Positions 1 to 14,990 of a stretch of DNA of 14,990 nt are shown piece by piece. This stretch comes from Rodentolepis nana (taxonomy: Eukaryota > Platyhelminthes > Cestoda > Cyclophyllidea > Hymenolepididae): contig UZAE01001143.1 of the NCBI GenBank assembly GCA_900617975.1, positions 1-14,990 of the forward strand, written 5' to 3'. A program made the position numbers and the translations under genes. Below the pieces are notes generated by a model. The model ran no database searches and had not been told where the DNA came from. It saw only the letters and a program-made list of their open reading frames with translations. Position 1 is the stretch's first letter; every line of letters starts with the position of its first letter.

Positions 1-202
1 TTTAGGTGACTTCGGGCTTCACAGAGAGGAGGAGGAACATTAAAATCCCAGAAAATCAAGAGAAAGAACAGAAGAGTGATTCACAGATGTAAAAGAGACA
101 GCCAGACACAAGGGCAGAGAAAAGGTAAGATGAGTACTGTGGAAGTGGTCGGGTGCGTACCATGGAAGTGGTCGAATATGACATACAGTGGAGTCATGGT
201 AA

Positions 203-378
203 ACAGTGGAAGTGGTCGAATATGCCATACAGTGAGGTCACGGTAGCTTGAAGTCAGAAGTCAACTGCCGATTAATAGACTTTTTTGCCACATGCAGTCA
301 GAAGTCAACTGCCGGTTTATAGACTTTTTTGCCGTTTGAGTAGTCAGAAGTCAACTGCCGGTTAATAGACTTTTTTGT
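203..378. repeat. 176-base direct repeat, first copy (second at 505-680)
   Basis: Bases 203-378 and 505-680 read identically, at an offset of 302 bases. Each contains one piece of the element body (ACAGTGGAAGTGGTCGAATA onward) and three of the ~40-base modules. Perfect identity over 176 bases, next to modules that differ from each other by several changes, shows that this higher-order duplication is much younger than the module amplification. An assembly artefact is possible but less likely, because the flanks differ on both sides. Confidence 0.9.
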
Positions 379-663
379 GAAGTGAGAAGTCAACTGCCAG
401 TTAATAGACCTTTTTGCGTTGAAGTCAGAAGTCAACTGCCGGTTAATAGAATTTTTTTGCCGATAGTGAGAAGTCAACTGCCGGTTTATAGACTTTTTTG
501 CCGCACAGTGGAAGTGGTCGAATATGCCATACAGTGAGGTCACGGTAGCTTGAAGTCAGAAGTCAACTGCCGATTAATAGACTTTTTTGCCACATGCAGT
601 CAGAAGTCAACTGCCGGTTTATAGACTTTTTTGCCGTTTGAGTAGTCAGAAGTCAACTGCCGG

Positions 664-721
664 TTAATAGACTTTTTTGTACCAGGCTGCACCAAGTGGA
701 GGTAAGTCTATCGCACACCCC
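664..721 (-). ncRNA. R1 HDV-like ribozyme, broken (P4 deleted)
   Basis: Read on the minus strand from 721, this region has the P1 5' strand GGGGTGT, P2 strand GATAGACTT, P3 ACC, loop TCCACTT, P3' GGT, a P1' strand with a change (GCAGCCT), and the P2' strand AAGTCTAT. The joining segment GGGCAAC, the P4 hairpin and the catalytic-cytosine segment are missing: TGG-TACAAAAAAG joins P1' almost directly to P2'. It should be inactive. The element 5' boundary is still recognisable. Confidence 0.75.
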
Positions 722-2384: not shown

Positions 2385-2395
2385 AAAGAAGTTGT
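2385..2395. repeat. Target-site duplication of R2, left copy
   Basis: AAAGAAGTTGT at 2385-2395 is repeated exactly at 2720-2730, directly flanking R2. An 11-base duplication of variable-length type points to target-primed reverse transcription. The first As of the right copy are ambiguous because the element tail is A-rich. Confidence 0.85.
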
Positions 2396-2466
2396 GGGGT
2401 GTGCGATAGACTTACCTCCACGTGGTGCACCCTGGGCAACGTATACTCATGCGGCAAAAAGTCTAT
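2396..2466 (+). ncRNA. R2 HDV-like self-cleaving ribozyme, all elements intact
   Basis: Predicted nested double pseudoknot. P1 is 2396-2402 (GGGGTGT) with 2427-2433 (GCACCCT), giving seven pairs and a G.U wobble at the cleavage-site pair as in HDV. J1/2 is GC. P2 is 2406-2413 (ATAGACTT) with 2459-2466 (AAGTCTAT). P3 is 2414-2416 (ACC) with 2424-2426 (GGT), and L3 is TCCACGT, supplying CC for P1.1 with GG at 2434-2435. Joining bases are GGGCAAC (2434-2440), the same seven bases that follow P1' in the hepatitis delta ribozyme. P4 is CGTAT/ATGCG closing ACTC. J4/2 is GCAAA, with C2455 as the likely catalytic cytosine. Cleavage is predicted just before G2396. The match is by eye, not by covariance model. 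Confidence 0.85.
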
Positions 2467-2719
2467 AAACCGGCAGTTGAATTCTGAGTTCAAGCTATCA
2501 TGACCCCACTGTACGTCATATTCGACTACTTTCACAGTACTCATCTCACCTTTTTTCTATCTTTGTGTCTGTCTCTTTTGCATCTTTGAATCACTCTTCT
2601 GTTCCCCCTCCCCTCTCGAATTTTTTCACTTTGATGTTCCTCTCCCTCTGTGAAGCCTGAAGTCAACTTAAAGGGCTAATAATAACTATCATAAAGCCTG
2701 TCATTTGATATAAATAAAT
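2396..2719 (+). mobile_element. R2: full-length ribozyme-bearing SINE-like retroposon (324 bases)
   Basis: The best complete copy in the window. In order it has: a 71-base HDV-like ribozyme (2396-2466); a spacer with CCGGCAGTTGA and a CTATCATGACCCCACTGTA segment; a pyrimidine-rich central part (about 2545-2655, runs of C and T); the conserved block TGAAGCCTGAAGTCAACTT / AAAGGGCTAAT; a short hairpin at 2678-2692 (imperfect here); and the tail ATAAATAAATA. It is flanked by AAAGAAGTTGT duplications. It has no terminal inverted repeats, no LTR, no long open frame and no obvious tRNA-type A/B boxes. It is most likely a non-autonomous element mobilised by a LINE that recognises the 3' end. The partner LINE is not in the window. 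Confidence 0.88.
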
Positions 2720-2730
2720 AAAGAAGTTGT

Positions 2731-3388: not shown

Positions 3389-3499
3389 GGGGTGTACGAT
3401 AGACCTACCTCCACGTGGTGCACCCTGGGCTTGTGCGGTAGACTTACCTCCACGTGGTGCACCCTGGGCACCGTATACTCATACGGCAAAAAAGTCTAT
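3389..3499 (+). ncRNA. R3 5' ribozyme region, partly duplicated, activity doubtful
   Basis: The P1 strand GGGGTGT, P2 strand (GATAGACCT, one change), P3 ACC, L3 TCCACGT, GGT and GCACCCT are present, followed by GGGC and then a second P2-P3-L3-P3'-P1' set (GGTAGACTT, ACC, TCCACGT, GGT, GCACCCT), GGGCA, the P4 hairpin CCGTAT/ATACGG closing ACTC, C plus As, and the P2' strand AAGTCTAT. The unit thus has one 5' P1 strand, two P1' strands and one P4/P2'. It might fold with the first or the second P1', or misfold. Confidence 0.6.
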
Positions 3500-3650
3500 T
3501 AACCGGCAGTTGTTGCGATAGACTTACCTCCACGCGGTGCACCCTGGGCAACCCACTCATACGGCAAAAAAGTCTATTAACCGGCAGTTGACTTATCACT
3601 TCTCATACGGCAAAAAAGTCTATTAATCGGCAGTTGACATCCCATACGGC

Positions 3651-3751
3651 TACCTCCACGTGGTGCACCCTGGGCAACGTGTACTTACAACCTCCATGTG
3701 GTGCACCCTGGGCAACGTATACTTATGCGGAAAAAAGTCTATTGACTGGTA
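3651..3751 (+). repeat. 101-base direct repeat inside R3 (second copy 4355-4455)
   Basis: Bases 3651-3751 and 4355-4455 are identical, offset 704 bases. Each holds two ribozyme cores, one with CCACGTGG and one with the variant CCATGTGG, followed by a variant P4/J4/2 (TATGCGGAAAAAAG, in which the catalytic-C position reads A) and CTATTGACTGGTA. The shared rare variants show block duplication, not independent module gain. Confidence 0.88.
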
Positions 3752-4467
3752 GTTGACTTCTCACTTCAAACTACCATCACCCCACTGTATAGTTGACCAC
3801 TGACTTCAAACTACCATGACCCCACTGTATGCCTTGACTTCTGACTTCAAACTACCATGACCCCACTGTATGTTACAAAGTATACTCATACGGCAAAAAG
3901 TCTATAAACCGGCAGTGGACTTCTGACTTCAAACTACCCTCACCCCACTATATGTCACAACTTCTCACTTCAAACTACCATCACCCCACTGTATGTCATT
4001 GTGTATGCGCATACGGCAAAAAAGTCTATAAACCGGCAGTTGATCTAACCCTAACACGGCAAAAAGTCTATAAACCGGCAGTTGACCTCTGACTTCAAAC
4101 TACCATGACCCCACTGTATGTCATATTTGGGCAACAGACCTCATACGGCAAAAAGTCTATAAACCGCTGGGCAACGTATACTCATACGGCAAAAAAGTCT
4201 ATTAAAGGCAGTTGACTTCTAACTTCAAACTACCATGACCCCATTGTGGCAGTTGACTTCTCACTTCAAACTACCATCACCCCATTGACGGGCAACGTAT
4301 ACTCATACGGCAAACAAGTCTATAAACCAATGGGCAACGTATACTCAAACGGCATACCTCCACGTGGTGCACCCTGGGCAACGTGTACTTACAACCTCCA
4401 TGTGGTGCACCCTGGGCAACGTATACTTATGCGGAAAAAAGTCTATTGACTGGTACTTCAAACTGCC

Positions 4468-4587
4468 CACGTGGTGCACCCTGGGCAACGTATATTCATA
4501 CGGCAAAAACGTGGTGCACCCTGGGCAACGCATACTCATACGGCAAAATGTGGTGCACCCTGGGCAACGTATACTCATAAGGCAAAA
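4468..4587 (+). repeat. Three tandem ~40-base ribozyme-core units in R3
   Basis: GTGGTGCACC recurs at 4471, 4511 and 4550, with periods of 40 and 39. Each unit runs from P3' through P1', GGGCAAC, the P4 hairpin (stem closing ACTC or ATTC) to the GCAAAA of J4/2, then straight into the next unit without P1, P2 or P2'. These units cannot form a full ribozyme by themselves. Confidence 0.8.
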
Positions 4588-4594
4588 AGATCCC

Positions 4595-4756
4595 TATTAA
4601 CCGGCAGTTGACTTCTGACTTCAAACTACCATACTATTAACTGGCAGTTGACTTCTCACTTCAAACTACCATCTATTAACCGGCAGTTGACTTCTGACTT
4701 CAAACTACCATGAGTAACCGGCAGTTGACTTCTGACTTCAAACTACCATGACCTCA
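4595..4756 (+). repeat. Four tandem ~39-base spacer units in R3
   Basis: The segment CGGCAGTTGACTTCT then ACTTCAAACTACCAT recurs beginning near 4601, 4641, 4680 and 4718, with periods of 40, 39 and 38. It is separated by short CTATTAAC or GAGTAAC links that resemble the end of P2'. It is the same spacer module that is amplified, on the opposite strand, in R1. Confidence 0.8.
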
Positions 4757-4964
4757 CTGTATATCAAAGTCGACCACTTCTACAATATTCACCTTACCAT
4801 GCTCTCTATCATTGTGTCTGTCTCTTTTGCATCCGCAAATCACTCTTCGGTCCACCCTCTTGAACTTTGATGTTTATCCCCTCTGTGAATTTCGAAGTCA
4901 GCTAAGGGCTAATGATAACCATCAAAATGACTGCATTCGAAATAAATAAATAAACATTGAACAC

Positions 4965-5411: not shown

Positions 5412-6055
5412 TTAGGGCATCTGTCGGTAGAGAGTTGTGGATAAAAGCTGAGATGTTGCTGAATTAGGATTCGGAGGGTGAGGAGGTATGGATTTTGGAG
5501 AAGAGGAGTTGGAAAAGTTAGAAGAGGAAGAGGAGGATGGTTGAGGAACTTGATTGTCAGTACAAAGATCGATAGAGGTGTGATCCATGCTGTAGGCGCT
5601 GAGAATTTTGGAAAGTCTTTCAGGCGGAGCATGCTTGACTTGCTTGAGAAGACTGTTCAGGAGATTCAACTCCCGAATCCTTGCAGCTACAGTGGATTGA
5701 AGACTAGAGTTTTCTTCGCGAAGGACTGAAAGACTACAATGAGAAGGGAACGTGTTTTAATGTTGAACCAAATTTTGGTCCAAATTGAGACATGAAATAT
5801 TTCCACTTACGTTTTGATAACCTCATTCTGCTTTGCCCGCTGCTTTTCGCGTGATTTTCTGACGGCAATGTTGTTGCGTTTACGGAGTGCAATGTATTTC
5901 TCATCTTCCATGTGGAGACCTCCAGACTGCTTGCTTTTTGATGATTTTGTGCTACAAGAGCCGGAGACACCACTTTTAGGTTCCATTTTGGTTAATCCAG
6001 ACGACTGAAAAGGTTGGAGCTCTTCGTGTTGACGCGTGTAACCCTTATTTGACAT
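5412..6055 (-). CDS. cebp: C/EBP-family bZIP transcription factor, two exons (188 residues)
   Basis: Exon 1 is 6055-5811 and exon 2 is 5733-5412 including TAA; joined they give 189 codons. Residues ~51-76 are a basic region with RNNIAVRKSR (60-69), the C/EBP signature including the family-typical Val65, followed by REKQRAKQ. The zipper continues across the splice: Leu at 86, 93 and 107 in d positions (Arg at 100) and Leu83, Asn90, Val97, Leu104 and Leu111 in a positions, ending RELNLLNSLLKQ, as in C/EBP RELDTLRGIFRQ. The protein should bind DNA as a dimer in the nucleus. Residues 1-50 are short and Ser/Lys-rich; residues ~125-188 form a Ser/Pro/Asn-rich tail with SSSSSS. Vertebrate C/EBPs instead end soon after the zipper and carry long N-terminal activation domains. 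The start is the first in-frame ATG, with A at -3; the open frame continues upstream without another ATG, so an upstream coding exon is not excluded. Confidence 0.85.
5734..5810 (-). other. Intron of the C/EBP gene (77 bases)
   Basis: On the minus strand the donor is AAAAC|GTAAGTGG and the acceptor is CCCTTCTCATTGTAG|TCTTTC. Splicing joins AC to T, restores one reading frame and places the zipper heptads in register with the basic region, which is strong support. A later AG at TTTCAG|TCC, 6 bases into exon 2, would also keep the frame and drop two residues (TLS becomes a shorter join), but this would break the zipper register. Confidence 0.85.
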
Positions 6056-6520: not shown

Positions 6521-6590
6521 TATTATTATTATTTCAAAAGGCAGACTTTGTAATATATATCATTAGCCCTTAAACTTTGACTTCAGCTTC
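6521..6590 (-). mobile_element. R4: decayed 3'-end fragment of the retroposon
   Basis: Reads ATTATTATTATTT (a degraded tail), then CAAAAGGCAGACTTTGTAAT, ATATCATTAGCCCTTAAAC and TTGACTTCAGCTTC. This parallels the reverse complement of the family 3' end (tail, GGCAGGC.TT, TATCATTAGCCC, TTGACTTCAGGCTTC). Only about 70 bases survive, with many changes, so this is an old 5'-truncated copy. Confidence 0.7.
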
Positions 6591-6913
6591 CCCCAAGGGT
6601 GGGGGGGGTACATTTATAGCAGTTCATTAGCTGTCTTCTTGCTTCCCAGTATCTCTGGGTTTCCGTCGTTGTCTTTAGGGATGGACATCGAACCAGGTGG
6701 GTCTTCTCCATTTCCTCCTGTGCTGCAATGTTGCCTTGGCCATTTTCTTAAACAACTATGGGTGTCGTGGGTTAGGAGTACCCCAAGGATAAACTCCGAG
6801 AACCACCAAATCCCACTTAGTGCACTTTATACTCAATGAAAATATTTGTGGACATTGAATTTCAGGTGGATGAAATCAAGGAAAATGAAACTATTTCACT
6901 TAAAGTAACATCA
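6591..6913. other. Intergenic, GC-richer segment of unknown origin
   Basis: After a G run (6601-6609), the stretch ~6630-6830 is visibly richer in G+C than the surrounding DNA. It is open for 66 codons on the plus strand (6639-6839) without a recognisable domain. It could be a fragment of another mobile element or of a pseudogene; I do not recognise it. The rest, 6840-6913, is ordinary AT-rich sequence. Confidence 0.35.
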
Positions 6914-7166
6914 GGCATTTGACTTCTGACTTCAAACTACCACGACCCCCCCCCCTGGCTGACATATTCGACCCCTTCCACAGTACTCAACTTACCTTTT
7001 TCTCTACCTTTGTGTCTGTCTGCCTCTTTTACATCTTTGAATCGCTCTTCTGTTCCTCACCCCTCGAATTTCTGCTACTTTGATGAACCTTCCCTCTGTG
7101 AAGCCTGAAGTCAACTAAAGGGCTAATGATACCTATCATAACGCCTGCCATTTGAAATAAATAAAT
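6914..7166 (+). mobile_element. R5: 5'-truncated retroposon copy
   Basis: Begins inside the spacer (GGCATTTGACTTCTGACTTC), so the ribozyme is absent. It continues through a CCACGA-C10 run (6946-6955), the CACAGTACTCA segment, the pyrimidine-rich middle, TGAAGCCTGAAGTCAACTAA and the hairpin ATGATA-CC-TATCAT (7126-7139), to the AAATAAATAAAT tail. A 5' truncation is the usual product of incomplete reverse transcription. No target duplication was found because R6 abuts the tail. Confidence 0.82.
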
Positions 7167-7398
7167 ACATCAAAGTGAAGGGAGAGGGGGAACAGAAGAG
7201 AGTTTTAAAGATGTAAAAGAGACAGACACAAAGGTAGAAAAAGGTGAGGTGAGTACTGCGACATTATTCGAATATGAAATTCAGTGGGGTCTTGGTAGTT
7301 TGAAGTCAGAAGTCAACTGCCGGTTAATAGACTTTTTTGCCGTATGAGTATACGGTGCCCAGGGTGCACCACGTGGAGGTAAGTCTATCGCACACCCC
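7167..7398 (-). mobile_element. R6: retroposon copy with intact 5' end, lacking its 3' end
   Basis: The minus-strand 5' end, GGGG, is at 7398-7395. The copy runs leftward to ACATCAAAGTGAAGG at 7167, where it stops about 80 bases short of a normal 3' end, exactly at the tail of R5. The missing 3' part together with the head-to-head contact suggests insertion followed by deletion or an inversion, or a template switch. With R5 it forms an inverted repeat with arms of roughly 150 bases or more. Confidence 0.82.
7327..7398 (-). ncRNA. R6 HDV-like ribozyme, all helices intact
   Basis: On the minus strand from 7398: P1 GGGGTGT pairs with GCACCCT; P2 ATAGACTT pairs perfectly with AAGTCTAT; P3 is ACC/GGT with loop TCCACGT. 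Then come GGGCA, the P4 hairpin CCGTAT-ACTC-ATACGG (six perfect pairs), the catalytic-C segment CAAAAA, and the end of P2' at 7327. It differs from R2 mainly in having one more P4 pair and GGGCA instead of GGGCAA before it. With R2 it is the best candidate for activity in the window. Confidence 0.82.
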
Positions 7399-7658
7399 TG
7401 TGTCATTGTTCGTCTATGTTTAACTTATTTAAACCAAAATCTGAAAACTCATTTTTGCCCAATGGTGTCTGCCTTTATTTTTTTCACACTTGAGACTCTG
7501 AATTGCTTTCCATAAGTCTTTGGCTTGTTTAAAATACCACTGGATAAAAGTAATGGGCACTGTCCATTATTGGGGTTTCAGTAACCTCAAGAACTTTGAG
7601 GTGTAAGATATTCAGAATTGCAACTTTCACCCATTGCTTAGACATTCATTCCACCTTA
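7399..7658. other. Intergenic spacer, no gene seen
   Basis: 260 bases of AT-rich sequence between R6 and R7. No open frame of note, no RNA gene and no repeat. Confidence 0.6.
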
Positions 7659-7671
7659 TTTCATGATTCCA
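7659..7671. repeat. Target-site duplication of R7, left copy
   Basis: TTTCATGATTCCA at 7659-7671 is repeated exactly at 7989-8001, 13 bases (14 if the A shared with the tail counts). The left copy ends directly against GGGG. Confidence 0.9.
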
Positions 7672-7743
7672 GGGGTGTGCGATAGACTTACCTCCACGTG
7701 GTGCACCCTGGGGACCGTATACTCATACGGCAAAAAAGCCTAT
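7672..7743 (+). ncRNA. R7 HDV-like ribozyme, lightly damaged
   Basis: P1 (GGGGTGT/GCACCCT), P3/L3 (ACC TCCACGT GGT) and P4 (CCGTAT-ACTC-ATACGG) are intact. Two changes stand out: GGGGACC in place of GGGCAAC or GGGCACC after P1', and AAGCCTAT in the P2' strand, which leaves one A-C mismatch inside P2. Activity may be reduced. Confidence 0.75.
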
Positions 7744-7988
7744 TAACCGGCAGTTGACTTCTGACTTTAAACTACCATCACCCCACTGTGTGTCATATTC
7801 GACTACTTTCACAGTACTCACCCCACCTTTTTCTACCTTTGTGTCTGTCTCTTTTACATCTTTGAAACGCCCTTCTGTTACCCCTCTCGACTTTTTTCAC
7901 TTTGATGTTCATTCCCCTCTGTGAAGCCTGAAGTTAACTAAAGGGCTAATGATAACTATCAAAACGCCTGCCATTTAATATAAATAAA
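7672..7988 (+). mobile_element. R7: full-length retroposon copy (317 bases)
   Basis: Complete copy with the 5' ribozyme (7672-7743), the CGGCAGTTGACTTCTGACTT spacer, an ACCATCACCCCACTGT segment, CATATTCGACTACTTTCACA, a pyrimidine-rich middle, TGAAGCCTGAAGTTAACTA, AAGGGCTAATGATAACTATC and an AATATAAATAAA tail. It is flanked by a perfect 13-base duplication, so it inserted fairly recently compared with R4. Confidence 0.9.
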
Positions 7989-8001
7989 TTTCATGATTCC
8001 A

Positions 8002-9179: not shown

Positions 9180-9495
9180 AATGGGGTGTGCGATAGACTT
9201 AACTCCACGTGGTGCACTCTGGGCAACGTATACTCATATGGCAAAAATGTCTATTAACCGGCAGTTGACTTCTCACTTCAAACTGCCATCACATCACTCT
9301 ATGTCATATTTCACAGTACTCACCTCACCTTTGTTCTACCTTTGCGTTTGTCTCTTACATCTTTGAAACACTCTTCTGTTCCCCCCCCCTCTCGACTTTT
9401 TTCACTTTGATGTTCATCTTCCTTTCTGTAAAGCCCGAAGTCAACTAAAGGGCTAATGATACCTATCACAACGTCTGCCGTTTGAAATAAATAAA
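9180..9495 (+). mobile_element. R8: full-length retroposon copy
   Basis: The element proper starts at 9183 (313 bases to the tail end). It has the ribozyme, a spacer with ACTGCCATCACATCACTCTA, a short deletion relative to R2 and R7 (CATATTTCACAG instead of CATATTCGACTACTTTCACAG), a pyrimidine-rich middle with CCTTTGCGTTTGTCTCTTAC and a C run, and TAAAGCCCGAAGTCAACTAA, AATGATACCTATCAC and a GAAATAAATAAA tail. The deletion and several substitutions are shared with R9, so these two belong to one subfamily. Confidence 0.87.
9183..9254 (+). ncRNA. R8 HDV-like ribozyme, decayed
   Basis: The fold is still recognisable, with GGGCAAC and L3 TCCACGT kept. P1' reads GCACTCT (a G.U pair replaces G-C). 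The P3 5' strand reads AAC (one mismatch with GGT). P4 is CGTAT/ATATG (one wobble). P2' reads ATGTCTAT (one mismatch with ATAGACTT). Weak activity or none is expected. Confidence 0.7.
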
Positions 9496-9506
9496 TTTTT
9501 TACACG

Positions 9507-9990: not shown

Positions 9991-10309
9991 TTTATTTATT
10001 TATACCGAATGGCAGGCTTTATGATAGTTATCATTAGCCCTTTAGCTGACTTCAGGCTTCACAGAGGAGGAGAAGGAACATCAAAGTGAAAAAAGTCGAG
10101 AGGGGGAGGGAACAGAAGAGTGTTTCAAAGATGTAAGAGACAAACGCAAAGGTAGAACAAAGGTGAGGTGAGTACTGTGAAATATGACATAGAGTGATGT
10201 GATGGCAGTTTGAAGTGAGAAGTCAACTGCCGGTTAATAGACATTTTTTGCCATATGAGTATACGTTGCCCAGGGTGCACCACGTGGAGGTAAGTCTATC
10301 GTTTACCCC
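9991..10309 (-). mobile_element. R9: full-length retroposon copy (319 bases)
   Basis: On the minus strand it runs from GGGG (10309-10306) to the tail, seen on the plus strand as TTTATTTATTTATACC at 9991. A perfect 3'-end hairpin ATGATA-GT-TATCAT (plus-strand reading) is at 10021-10034. The 5' two-thirds is nearly the same as R8, including the CATATTTCACAG deletion and CTTTGCGTTTGTCTCTTAC. The 3' third is closer to R2 (TGAAGCCTGAAGTCAGCTA, AACTATCATAAAGCCTG). I found no convincing target-site duplication. Confidence 0.87.
10237..10309 (-). ncRNA. R9 HDV-like ribozyme, P1 damaged
   Basis: From 10309 on the minus strand, P1 reads GGGGTAA, so the last two of the seven pairs with GCACCCT are lost. 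P3/L3 (ACC TCCACGT GGT) and GGGCAAC are intact. P4 is CGTAT/ATATG with one wobble. The P2' strand ATGTCTAT has one mismatch, as in R8. The fold is recognisable but likely weak. Confidence 0.7.
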
Positions 10310-12995: not shown

Positions 12996-13856
12996 ATGTC
13001 TGATTTGTTCCGATGCCGGGCATCAACGTGGAGTGCTGGTGCAATTCCAGACCACCACGAACACGACCCAGATCAGCCACGTATTGGGGGATTTGATTAT
13101 GGTGACTGTGCGGCCTCTGTCTCAGCAGCTGCAGCTGCTGCTCTTGCACTTCACAGCGCCAATGCCTCAGGATCTCCTATTGATCCAGTCTCAGCCAACA
13201 CTGGAACTGGCAGTTTCCACTACTCTCCCACCGATTTAACCTCTCAGGAATTCTCCAATAACTCTCGTCGCCATCCCATGCTTGACAAGGCCCCCTCTGA
13301 AACCACTTCCGATTACGCACAAAACTTTTTTAATTCTTCTCCCCCTCCACGGGGTTCGATAGATTGGAGTACATCTGGGACCTTTGCTCAGTCAAACTTC
13401 TCAGTTTTGTCAGTTACCGCTAACTCACCCTTCGGTGGGCATCATACCGATAATTCTGGTAGTCTCTTAACTCCCTACGGGGGCTCCTCTCCTTACGCAA
13501 ATGGTCAACAACAGCAGCAGCAGACCTCTCAACCTGGTCTTCATTCCGGGTCGCCAAGTTCTGTCGGAAGTCAGTTGTCAAATATAATGAGTGGTGGATT
13601 GAGCTCTAATACTCCAACAACAACAACAACACCGACTACTCAATCGTCGGGAAATGGAGGAGCATCGGGTTCAGCAGCAAAGAGACCAGCTAGACGAAAT
13701 CCCTGGGGTTCGGAAACATATTCAGATCTCATTGCCAAAGCGATCGAGTCCTATCCAGACAAACAGGCCACACTTCAACAAATCTACGATTACATCTCCA
13801 CAAATTACACGTATTTCAGGGAAAGGAGTGATCCACCAGCGTCTGCCGGTTGGAAA
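12996..13856 (+). CDS. foxo: FOXO forkhead transcription factor, 5' coding exon (residues 1-287)
   Basis: FOXO proteins are nuclear targets of insulin/PI3K-Akt signalling. Residues 6-12, RCRASTW, match the N-terminal Akt/14-3-3 site of FOXO (RxRxxTW), with Thr11 as acceptor; the Pro normally two residues after Thr is Ser here. Residues 13-227 are low-complexity: an Ala run (44-49), six Gln (171-176), a Thr run (208-212) and much Ser/Gly. Residues 233-287 are the first half of the forkhead, starting RRNPWGSETYSDLIAKAIES, then TLQQIYDYIS and YFRERSDPPASAGWK, closest to FOXO by the SAGWK end. The recognition helix, the second Akt site and the activation domain must lie in later exons, not found to 14990. 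The ATG is the first in frame after TAA at 12942; its context is weak (T at -3). Reading on past 13856 adds 31 non-forkhead residues and a stop at 13952, which I take to be intron. Confidence 0.9.
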
Positions 13857-14990
13857 GCAAGTTCTCTTTTTAATACTTTCTTTACTTTGGGGGGAAAGAC
13901 TGTGGCTATTCATTCTCCCACACGTGTCTACGCGTTTTTTTTTGTTTCATGAAGCACAAGTTGAGTTATAAATAGACCGGTTGACATATTGCGGTTTTAT
14001 CTAACTTTGATGTTTCACTACGTATAGCTTGCTTAAATAATCATATAAAGGTAACTTTTGTTGAGGAGACTGTTGAAAATTGTTGCGGCTTCTTTAACTC
14101 AATTACTTGATATTCTGAAATCCACATTTTCACCCTCTCTATCTCTCTTTCTCTGCCTTATGTCTTACTCAGATTGGTTTCACTGGAAAATACTTGTAAA
14201 TTATGCCCTACTTTCATGGTTTTAAATCTTCTTTGTGTGCTATTGAAATGGTCTTTATTTTGGGTTTTATTATTCCTTTATTTTTATACCTGGTTAGTTC
14301 CCTAAGCACCTTATTATCCAACTTTGGCTATATGGTTTGTAACTAATAAAATTTTAAGTCTGAAATATAGTTGTAAATTTATATTACAAGTCGGTGTAAA
14401 TTCGTAATTATGGATTTCAAATCTTTAAGGGTTTCCCCTGATTTCGATGTATTGGTGTCTATCATCACTTGCATGCGCATGCATATACTACTTATAAGTT
14501 CTTAGACCTCTTTACTGCCATAAAGAATTCTAGAATAATAAAAAATTACTAAGAGGCTGCTGATTCTCTTAAGGTCAATAAATTCCCTTTAAAATTCAAA
14601 TATTAGCCTTTCTAAAGGAGTAGATTTCTTAAGTATTTTTGGGAGGTGAGTGGAGGGGTGGGATTTATGGAGAAATTAATTTATCTATGTTTTTAATACT
14701 ATTTCCCATTATCAGTTTGAAATACCGACATTTGACGTGTATGACTAATATTTTTGAACTGAAAAATTATGATTTTCCGGCCCAATAATATGAAGCTGTG
14801 TGTGTGTGTGTGGCAAAGACCAATTAATGTTTCTTTTTTCAATTGTACTAGCCACACGATGTTAAGAAGCGATCGGGTGTCATTTATCATTTTAGTCTGA
14901 TCTAAAAATCTTGGTTCCACGGGCAATTTCTTTAATTTCATTGCAAAATTAAAGCTTTATCCAGGCCACGCTTCCACCCTTGCACCCCCC
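13857..14990 (+). other. FOXO intron 1 (5' part) with an apparent GC donor
   Basis: The exon should end after the Lys of SAGWK (AAA at 13854-13856), as in animal FOXO genes, where an intron splits the forkhead at this point in phase 0. The bases that follow are GCAAGT, not GTAAGT; GCAAGT is the usual form of GC-AG donors. No GT within a few bases keeps the frame and the domain. I searched the rest of the window for a NSIRHNLS-type continuation and found none, so the intron exceeds 1.1 kb. It is otherwise AT-rich with no gene visible, and the frame near 14699-14941 on the minus strand is not convincing. Confidence 0.7.
14797..14812. repeat. (TG)8 microsatellite
   Basis: Eight TG units in the FOXO intron. 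A short GT-type simple repeat with no further meaning visible. Confidence 0.9.

What the first reader, a model, noticed from the sequence alone, without database searches (positions are those of the whole stretch)
2396..2466. HDV-like self-cleaving ribozyme at the 5' end of a SINE-like retroposon
Seen: P1, P2, P3, L3, P1', GGGCAAC, a P4 hairpin, a catalytic-C segment and P2' occur in the exact order of the delta ribozyme, including the G.U pair at the cleavage site, a two-base J1/2, a UCC-starting L3 able to form P1.1, and the same seven bases after P1'. The same layout is found in R6, R7, R8 and R9 at varying decay. Known: HDV-like ribozymes process the 5' ends of some R2, RTE and L1-type LINEs and trypanosome elements. 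Inference: this short, ORF-less family uses one to release its RNA from host transcripts, which would explain the absence of an obvious internal promoter. A ribozyme-bearing SINE family in this organism may be undescribed.
Basis: partly seen in the sequence, partly recalled or inferred. Interest (0 to 1): 0.95.

Follow-up and report, generated by a model that had tools for sequence, protein, structure and literature searches.

The report
Self-cleaving ribozyme starts tapeworm retroposon
In a tapeworm genome, a short mobile element present in very many copies begins at the predicted cut site of a delta-virus-type self-cleaving RNA, and it shares that RNA and its tail with a longer element that encodes copying enzymes.

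Summary
Bases 2396-2466 fit the delta-type double pseudoknot, with the catalytic C at 2455. Rfam's compact HDV-like model scores five full copies in the window at 34-39 bits (E 0.0002-0.003). Genome-wide, 61 of 61 scored candidates match and 37 pass Rfam's cut-off; none of 14 control genomes rings. The host is a tapeworm, by COX1 probably cyclophyllidean. Insertion borders give independent support: of 56 copies with an exact target-site duplication, it ends exactly at the predicted cleavage G in 28 and within one base in 35 (24 further copies had none).

The main new result is the partner. An EN-RT-RNase H LINE in the same genome starts at the same G with the same ribozyme and ends in a similar 3' tail. 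The short element keeps the LINE's two ends around an unrelated middle. That is the SIDE plan known from Drosophila R2 and from L1Tc/NARTc, not a classical Pol III SINE. Cleavage is untested. Covariation inside the family is no better than shuffled. No paper on flatworm HDV-like ribozymes turned up in the open library searched.

The parts
2396..2466 (+). HDV-like ribozyme of the index copy (cut site 5' of G2396; catalytic C2455; P1 2396-2402/2427-2433, P2 2406-2413/2459-2466, P3 2414-2416/2424-2426, P1.1 2418-2419/2434-2435, P4 2440-2444/2449-2453)
   Evidence: RF02682 39.3 bits, E 2.2e-4 at 2398-2467; RF00094 29.7 bits at 2394-2467; pairs by reading, all intact here
2396..2719 (+). complete short element (ribozyme, middle, LINE-like 3' tail rich in AAAT repeats)
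   Evidence: 88% to copy 7672 over 325 columns; TSD on both sides
2385..2395 (+). 5' target-site duplication AAAGAAGTTGT, abutting G2396
2720..2730 (+). 3' target-site duplication AAAGAAGTTGT
   Evidence: sequence
7672..7989 (+). complete copy with ribozyme 7672-7743; 14-bp TSD ATTTCATGATTCCA at 7658-7671 and 7988-8001
9183..9496 (+). complete copy with ribozyme; TSD ATTTTTTACACG ends 3 bases before G1
9994..10309 (-). complete copy with ribozyme at 10309-10237; no exact TSD of 8 or more found
7167..7398 (-). copy with ribozyme at 7398-7327, matching element bases 1-237, without the 3' tail; abuts the next copy tail-side
6914..7166 (+). 5'-truncated copy (element bases 78-318), no ribozyme
3389..4951 (+). 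iterated copy: begins at ribozyme base 1, interior of repeated fragments, ends in the tail; TSD ATTGAACAC abuts base 1
1..721 (-). second iterated copy, ribozyme base 1 at 721; 3' end outside the window
6521..6721 (-). 5'-truncated 3' end of the partner LINE
   Evidence: 84.8% over 217 columns to L031

Best explanation
The 71-base segment is an HDV-like self-cleaving ribozyme forming the 5' terminus of a short non-autonomous non-LTR retroposon (SIDE-like). When a copy lies inside a host transcript, the nascent RNA folds and cuts itself just 5' of G1, giving an RNA with a defined 5'-OH end. The 3' tail of about 65-70 nt, shared with an EN-RT-RNase H LINE, lets the LINE's enzyme bind and copy it by target-primed reverse transcription, so new insertions start at the cut site and carry the ribozyme again. 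Shown here: the fold by covariance model, the start of short element and LINE copies at the same G1, variable target-site duplications abutting G1, and the similar tail. Inferred: cleavage, read-through transcription, and recognition of the tail by the LINE enzyme.
For: Covariance models. Insertion borders: of 80 unique copies with flanks, 56 have an exact TSD of 8 or more; it ends exactly at G1 in 28 and within one base in 35. In 72 copies (of 795 exact tails) chosen by their 3' tail alone, 47 align from base 1 and 10 more from bases 2-11. Information content is at most 0.42 bits at each of 30 upstream positions (83 copies whose match began at base 1) and 1.03-1.48 bits at bases 1-6 (112 copies); catalytic C kept in 110 of 112. 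LINE: of six endonuclease loci, four start with GGGG at the border (L125, L126, L127, L129) and four have an RF02682 hit there (L129 37.1, L127 34.6, L128 33.4, L125 26.2 bits). LINE copy L127 has a 12-bp TSD abutting GGGG. Tail shared at 79-83% over 63-73 columns (L031, L032); ribozyme at 88% (67/76) to copy L105 and 84% (64/76) to copy 7672. A 205-nt LINE derivative with little beyond ribozyme and tail has a 17-bp TSD ending one base before G1 (L140). Between random copies the two shared ends are 90% identical, the middle 79% (150 sampled pairs).
Against: No cleavage or RNA data. Inside the family, changes on both sides of a pair are no commoner than in shuffles (3 pairs versus a mean of 3.6), so covariation here adds nothing. 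Only 31 of 107 copies keep every named pair and the C (a stricter count that took an alignment gap as a lost pair gave 28). No window copy reaches Rfam's gathering score. 24 of 80 copies have no exact TSD and 21 of the 56 found end more than one base from G1, a few by chance. LINE loci L124 and L128 lack an intact start, L124 and L126 have no Rfam hit there at E up to 5, and no TSD was found for L128. A sharp 5' end could also come from a transcription start at G1.
Confidence: 0.87

Rival explanations
1. The segment is both a DNA-level internal promoter starting transcription at G1 and a ribozyme, as the Pr77 hallmark is in trypanosomatids; the promoter, not cleavage, sets the 5' end.
For: PMC4035085 passages report this double role for L1Tc/NARTc. 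A start site at G1 would also give full-length copies with a sharp end.
Against: Nothing here tests a promoter; upstream of G1 little is conserved. Promoter activity would not explain a compact delta-type fold with conserved C and P1.1.
Confidence: 0.25
2. A once active ribozyme that is now dead in all lineages; the motif persists only because copies are young.
For: Most single copies carry changes in named pairs: 31 of 107 are intact; no within-family covariation.
Against: The short family, LINE copies and internally deleted derivatives keep the core; the shared ends are better kept than the middle; 37 of 61 scored copies pass Rfam's cut-off.
Confidence: 0.08
3. Classical Pol III SINE with an incidental delta-like 5' fold.
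For: Length about 320 bp, LINE-like tail, TSDs, many copies.
Against: No match to two A-box and three B-box patterns in three copies, no tRNA, no Rfam tRNA, 7SL or 5S hit in the window; the 5' end is that of a LINE.
Confidence: 0.04
4. Chance resemblance or a DNA transposon (MITE) end.
For: Scores in this window are below gathering.
Against: Genome-wide scores above gathering with no control genome ringing; TSDs of variable length; A+T-rich tail and an RT-bearing relative with the same ends.
Confidence: 0.01

Closest known systems
L1Tc/NARTc and ingi/RIME of trypanosomatids
   Same: EN-RT-RNase H LINE and short truncated partner share a 5' terminal HDV-like ribozyme; cleavage shown there in vitro for several members (PMC4035085, passages)
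   Different: Other phylum; there the short element is described as a truncated LINE, here the main family has a middle of about 150 nt with no match in the LINE pieces compared; promoter role unknown here
R2 SIDEs and R2/R1 hybrid SIDEs of Drosophila
   Same: 5' ribozyme plus LINE 3' end is what is kept; the authors do not call such elements SINEs (PMC3414825, abstract and passages)
   Different: R2 and R1 insert in 28S genes; these copies are dispersed with variable TSDs, and far more numerous than the copy numbers in the passages seen
HDV-F-prausnitzii ribozyme (Rfam RF02682) and HDV ribozyme (RF00094)
   Same: Fold, order of helices, GGCAAC core, catalytic C; RF02682 scores up to 54.5 bits
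   Different: Helix sequences, short P4 compared with RF00094; host and context
Schistosome SINE-like elements with hammerhead ribozymes (recalled, no call)
   Same: Flatworm short retroposon with a self-cleaving RNA
   Different: Hammerhead, not delta type; a Hammerhead_1 search here gave no match, but no control rang

Membership tests
HDV-like self-cleaving ribozymes | Nested double pseudoknot P1, P1.1, P2, P3, P4 in order | tested here: met
   models; named structure pairs in 92.4% of cells of 103 distinct rows against 34-52% when slid
HDV-like self-cleaving ribozymes | Catalytic C after P4 and G at the cut site pairing with U | tested here: met
   C in 105 of 107, G.U in 87 of 107
HDV-like self-cleaving ribozymes | Score over Rfam's curated cut-off | tested here: met
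   37 of 61 scored genome copies over 44 bits; none in the window
HDV-like self-cleaving ribozymes | Compensatory changes in the helices | tested here: inconclusive
   within the family not above shuffles; one LINE copy (L126) has a T-A to A-T swap in P1
HDV-like self-cleaving ribozymes | Self-cleavage 5' of P1 | not testable with these tools
   needs in vitro transcription
SIDE (LINE-derived short element with 5' ribozyme) | 5' and 3' ends shared with an autonomous-type LINE | tested here: met
   whether any LINE copy is still active was not tested
SIDE (LINE-derived short element with 5' ribozyme) | Interior derived from the LINE | tested here: inconclusive
   middle of the main family matched only short-element copies in the 12 RT loci; interiors of L130 and L140 are LINE
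SIDE (LINE-derived short element with 5' ribozyme) | Inserted by target-primed reverse transcription (variable TSD, A+T-rich tail) | tested here: met
SINE | Internal Pol III promoter from tRNA, 7SL or 5S RNA | tested here: not met
   (simple patterns, three copies)
SINE | 3' tail shared with a LINE | tested here: met
R2 | Insertion in 28S rRNA genes | tested here: not met
   copies have unrelated flanks and TSDs
RNase H-bearing LINE such as I, R1, LOA or ingi (partner; clade features recalled) | AP endonuclease, RT, RNase H | tested here: met
   PF14529, PF00078, two RNase H pieces to PF00075: E 8e-5 (23.3 bits, below the 25.8 cut-off) and 4e-6 (27.4 bits, above it); exact clade not tested

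The most novel reading that the evidence does not exclude
In tapeworms an RNase H-bearing LINE uses a compact delta ribozyme as most of its 5' UTR and has repeatedly thrown off short parasites reduced to ribozyme plus 3' tail. One of them picked up a foreign middle and became a dominant short retroposon of the genome, an abundant SINE-like family that lives by self-cleavage from host transcripts instead of by its own promoter.
Probability: 0.6. Interest if true: 0.7.

Novelty: new member of a known kind. Interest (0 to 1): 0.62.

Why it matters
It brings delta-type ribozymes and the LINE/SIDE ribozyme pair into flatworms, where the searches here found no report of them. It offers hundreds to thousands of natural ribozyme copies with readable insertion borders, and natural minimal elements (205 nt in L140) that suggest which parts a retroposon needs: a ribozyme for its 5' end and a tail for the enzyme. 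It predicts a class of uncapped 5'-OH RNAs in tapeworms and makes the promoter-or-ribozyme question directly testable.

Tried and rejected
Within-family covariation was tried as proof of structure and failed; it is reported as a negative. Reading the family as a tRNA-, 7SL- or 5S-derived SINE was rejected. A MITE was rejected because of variable TSDs and the LINE relation. A hammerhead search found nothing, but its control was silent too. An exact 28-base pattern scan of viral contigs found no copy. The organism could not be named to species: the nearest named COX1 shown is Pseudanoplocephala crawfordi at 89%, with an unnamed cluster at 91% (120 of 8000 hits listed). The LINE clade was not placed by a tree, for want of named reference clades.

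Rows dropped: 5 of 112 ribozyme regions that came from iterated arrays were left out of the alignment and pair counts. Upstream conservation used the 83 of 112 copies whose match began at base 1. One search used 73 elements starting at base 1, set three divergent loci (L064, L086, L100) and four of one subfamily apart, and sampled 150 pairs among 66. The 72 tail-selected copies come from the first contigs of the list (795 tails in all). Of the 61 genome matches only four loci were read.

Full report
The finding stands up. Rfam's covariance models, built without this family, place a compact HDV-like ribozyme at 2398-2467 (39.3 bits, E 2.2e-4) and at four more full copies in register (34.4-38.5 bits). 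The window lies in a 107-Mb genome of 4701 contigs. Over that genome the same model matched 61 of 61 scored candidates (of 25212 first-look candidates), 37 above Rfam's gathering score, with none of 14 control genomes ringing. Four of these loci were read; each is a copy of the short element. The 27-base core recurs 4252 times exactly (2013 + 2239) and its reversed control never; iterated copies inflate that number. Exact 3' tails number 795.

The host is a tapeworm. The COX1 of contig C1797 has in-frame TGA codons and was read with the flatworm mitochondrial code; among the hits shown, the closest named are Pseudanoplocephala crawfordi (89%), Taenia (87%) and Echinococcus (86%), behind an unnamed cluster at 91%. 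Among named hits the partner LINE's reverse transcriptase is closest to sequences of Rodentolepis nana and Hymenolepis microstoma; the top hit is unnamed.

Fold of the index copy, by reading: P1 of seven pairs with G.U at the cut site, a short J1/2, P2 of eight pairs, P3 of three, L3 UCCACGU with two C for P1.1, GGGCAAC, P4 of five, then GGC with the catalytic C at 2455. In 107 aligned copies (of 112 found; five array pieces dropped) the C is kept in 105, P1.1 in 98, P3 in 92 and the G.U pair in 87. All pairs plus C are kept in 31 of 107, the index copy among them (an earlier count that treated a gap as a lost pair gave 28). The named structure pairs in 92.4% of cells against 34-52% when slid, but changes on both sides are not more frequent than in shuffles. 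Independently decaying copies of a few masters would look like that, so the structural case rests on the external models and not on covariation inside the family.

Insertion borders give an independent test, because they record where the copied RNA began. Of 80 unique near-complete copies with flanks, 56 have an exact target-site duplication of at least 8 bases. In 28 it ends exactly before G1 and in 7 more one base to either side; the other 21 end further off, a few probably chance matches, and 24 copies have none. In 72 copies selected only by their 3' tail, 47 align from base 1, 10 from bases 2-11, 1 meets a contig edge, and 14 are split by indels or truncated. Information content is at most 0.42 bits at each of the 30 bases before G1 (83 copies) and 1.03-1.48 bits at bases 1-6 (112 copies). 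So the element's 5' end is the predicted cleavage point.

The partner LINE was found through the tail. Reverse-transcriptase loci L031 and L032 end in a stretch of 63-73 columns that is 79-83% identical to the short element's tail, downstream of RT (PF00078) and of RNase H pieces (PF00075, E 8e-5, below the curated cut-off, and 4e-6, above it; pieces from L032). Six endonuclease loci (PF14529) belong to the same LINE or close to it. Four of them (L125, L126, L127, L129) start with GGGG at the border and run into the same ribozyme; L128 lacks the first bases and L124 is rearranged. Rfam finds the ribozyme there in L129, L127, L128 and L125 (37.1, 34.6, 33.4, 26.2 bits) and not in L124 or L126 at E up to 5. 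LINE copy L127 has a 12-bp duplication abutting the G; for L128 none was found. From coordinates of L125 and L032 the LINE is about 3.9 kb. By reading, an ATG that opens the endonuclease frame lies about 32 bases past P2', so the ribozyme is most of its 5' UTR; this last point is inference. A LINE-type ribozyme pattern occurs 250 times (122 + 128), reversed control 0, though it also catches some short elements. Of 12 such loci read, 8 have LINE sequence and start with GGGG at the border, one has LINE sequence and starts TGGG, one is a short-element copy starting with GGGG, and two have a broken start.

Short element and LINE share 88% over the ribozyme (67/76, L105; 84% for copy 7672), about 70% over the next 19-20 bases and 47%, near background, after that until the tail. 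Between random copies the ribozyme and tail are 90% identical, the middle 79%. Locus L140 holds a 205-nt LINE derivative that is little more than ribozyme, some 40 bases of LINE and tail, with a 17-bp duplication ending one base before G1; L130 and L132 are longer internal deletions, without a TSD found (L130 meets a contig end). This is the plan of the R2 SIDEs of Drosophila, whose authors decline the name SINE for it (PMC3414825, abstract and passages), and of NARTc and RIME beside L1Tc and ingi, whose shared 5' hallmark is both promoter and ribozyme (PMC4035085, passages).

How it most likely works: read-through host transcripts fold the ribozyme, cut at G1, and the released RNA is copied by the LINE's enzyme, which recognises the tail. 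The borders, the shared ends and the model scores are shown; the cutting, the read-through and the recognition are inferred. The main rival is that the same bases also serve as a promoter.

Novelty. HDV-like ribozymes in R2 and other LINEs are known (PMC7761336, passages), and so are ribozyme-bearing short partners. In the open-access library the searches that joined ribozymes with cestodes, flatworms, Hymenolepis or tapeworm names gave no report of an HDV-like ribozyme in a flatworm: one search returned one paper on LTR elements, one arthropod virus paper, none, and of 1063 papers the 10 listed show no HDV terms (listings only). Broader searches listed the R2 and trypanosomatid work; one search was too broad to use. 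In the Hymenolepis microstoma genome paper a term search found no 'ribozyme' (PMC7653826, passages), nor in a 2025 paper on flatworm SL RNAs (PMC12582326, passages). Subscription journals were not searched. I file it as a new member of a known kind in a new phylum, with a middle of unknown origin and high copy number.

Noticed in passing
window 3389-4951 (+), 1-721 (-); L022-L026: Iterated copies: the first block begins at ribozyme base 1 and ends in the tail, but pieces of about 39-44 nt are repeated many times in between. It is flanked by one TSD (ATTGAACAC), so it looks like one insertion, either stuttered during reverse transcription or expanded later; an assembly artefact is not excluded. 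For the L022 array no TSD was found.
   Followed up: partly
window 6914-7398: Two copies lie tail to tail (6914-7166 +, 7167-7398 -), the second without its own tail.
   Followed up: no
window 6521-6721 (-): 3' fragment of the partner LINE, 84.8% to L031 over 217 columns.
   Followed up: yes
window 5807-5988 (-) and 12996-13860 (+): By reading, a C/EBP-like bZIP exon and a FOXO-like forkhead exon (ORFs; names recalled); the attempted Pfam scans failed on coordinates.
   Followed up: no
P0150, P0155: Spider proteins (Caerostris extrusa, Araneus ventricosus) are 54% and 45% identical to the tapeworm LINE's RT over 30% and 38% of the query, possibly a trace of horizontal transfer.
   Followed up: no
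L140, 205-nt element: Minimal LINE derivative (ribozyme plus tail) with a 17-bp TSD, a natural deletion experiment.
   Followed up: yes
PMC6401454: A SINE-like sequence of planthoppers is reported in iridovirus IIV-6 (passages; the word ribozyme does not occur there). A delta-like ribozyme has been described in that virus (recalled); whether the two overlap was not checked.
   Followed up: no
G000:C472:20267-20551: Weak second COX1 match (29.8 bits, below cut-off) with stop codons, in the same locus as a short-element copy (L116); nature unknown.
   Followed up: no
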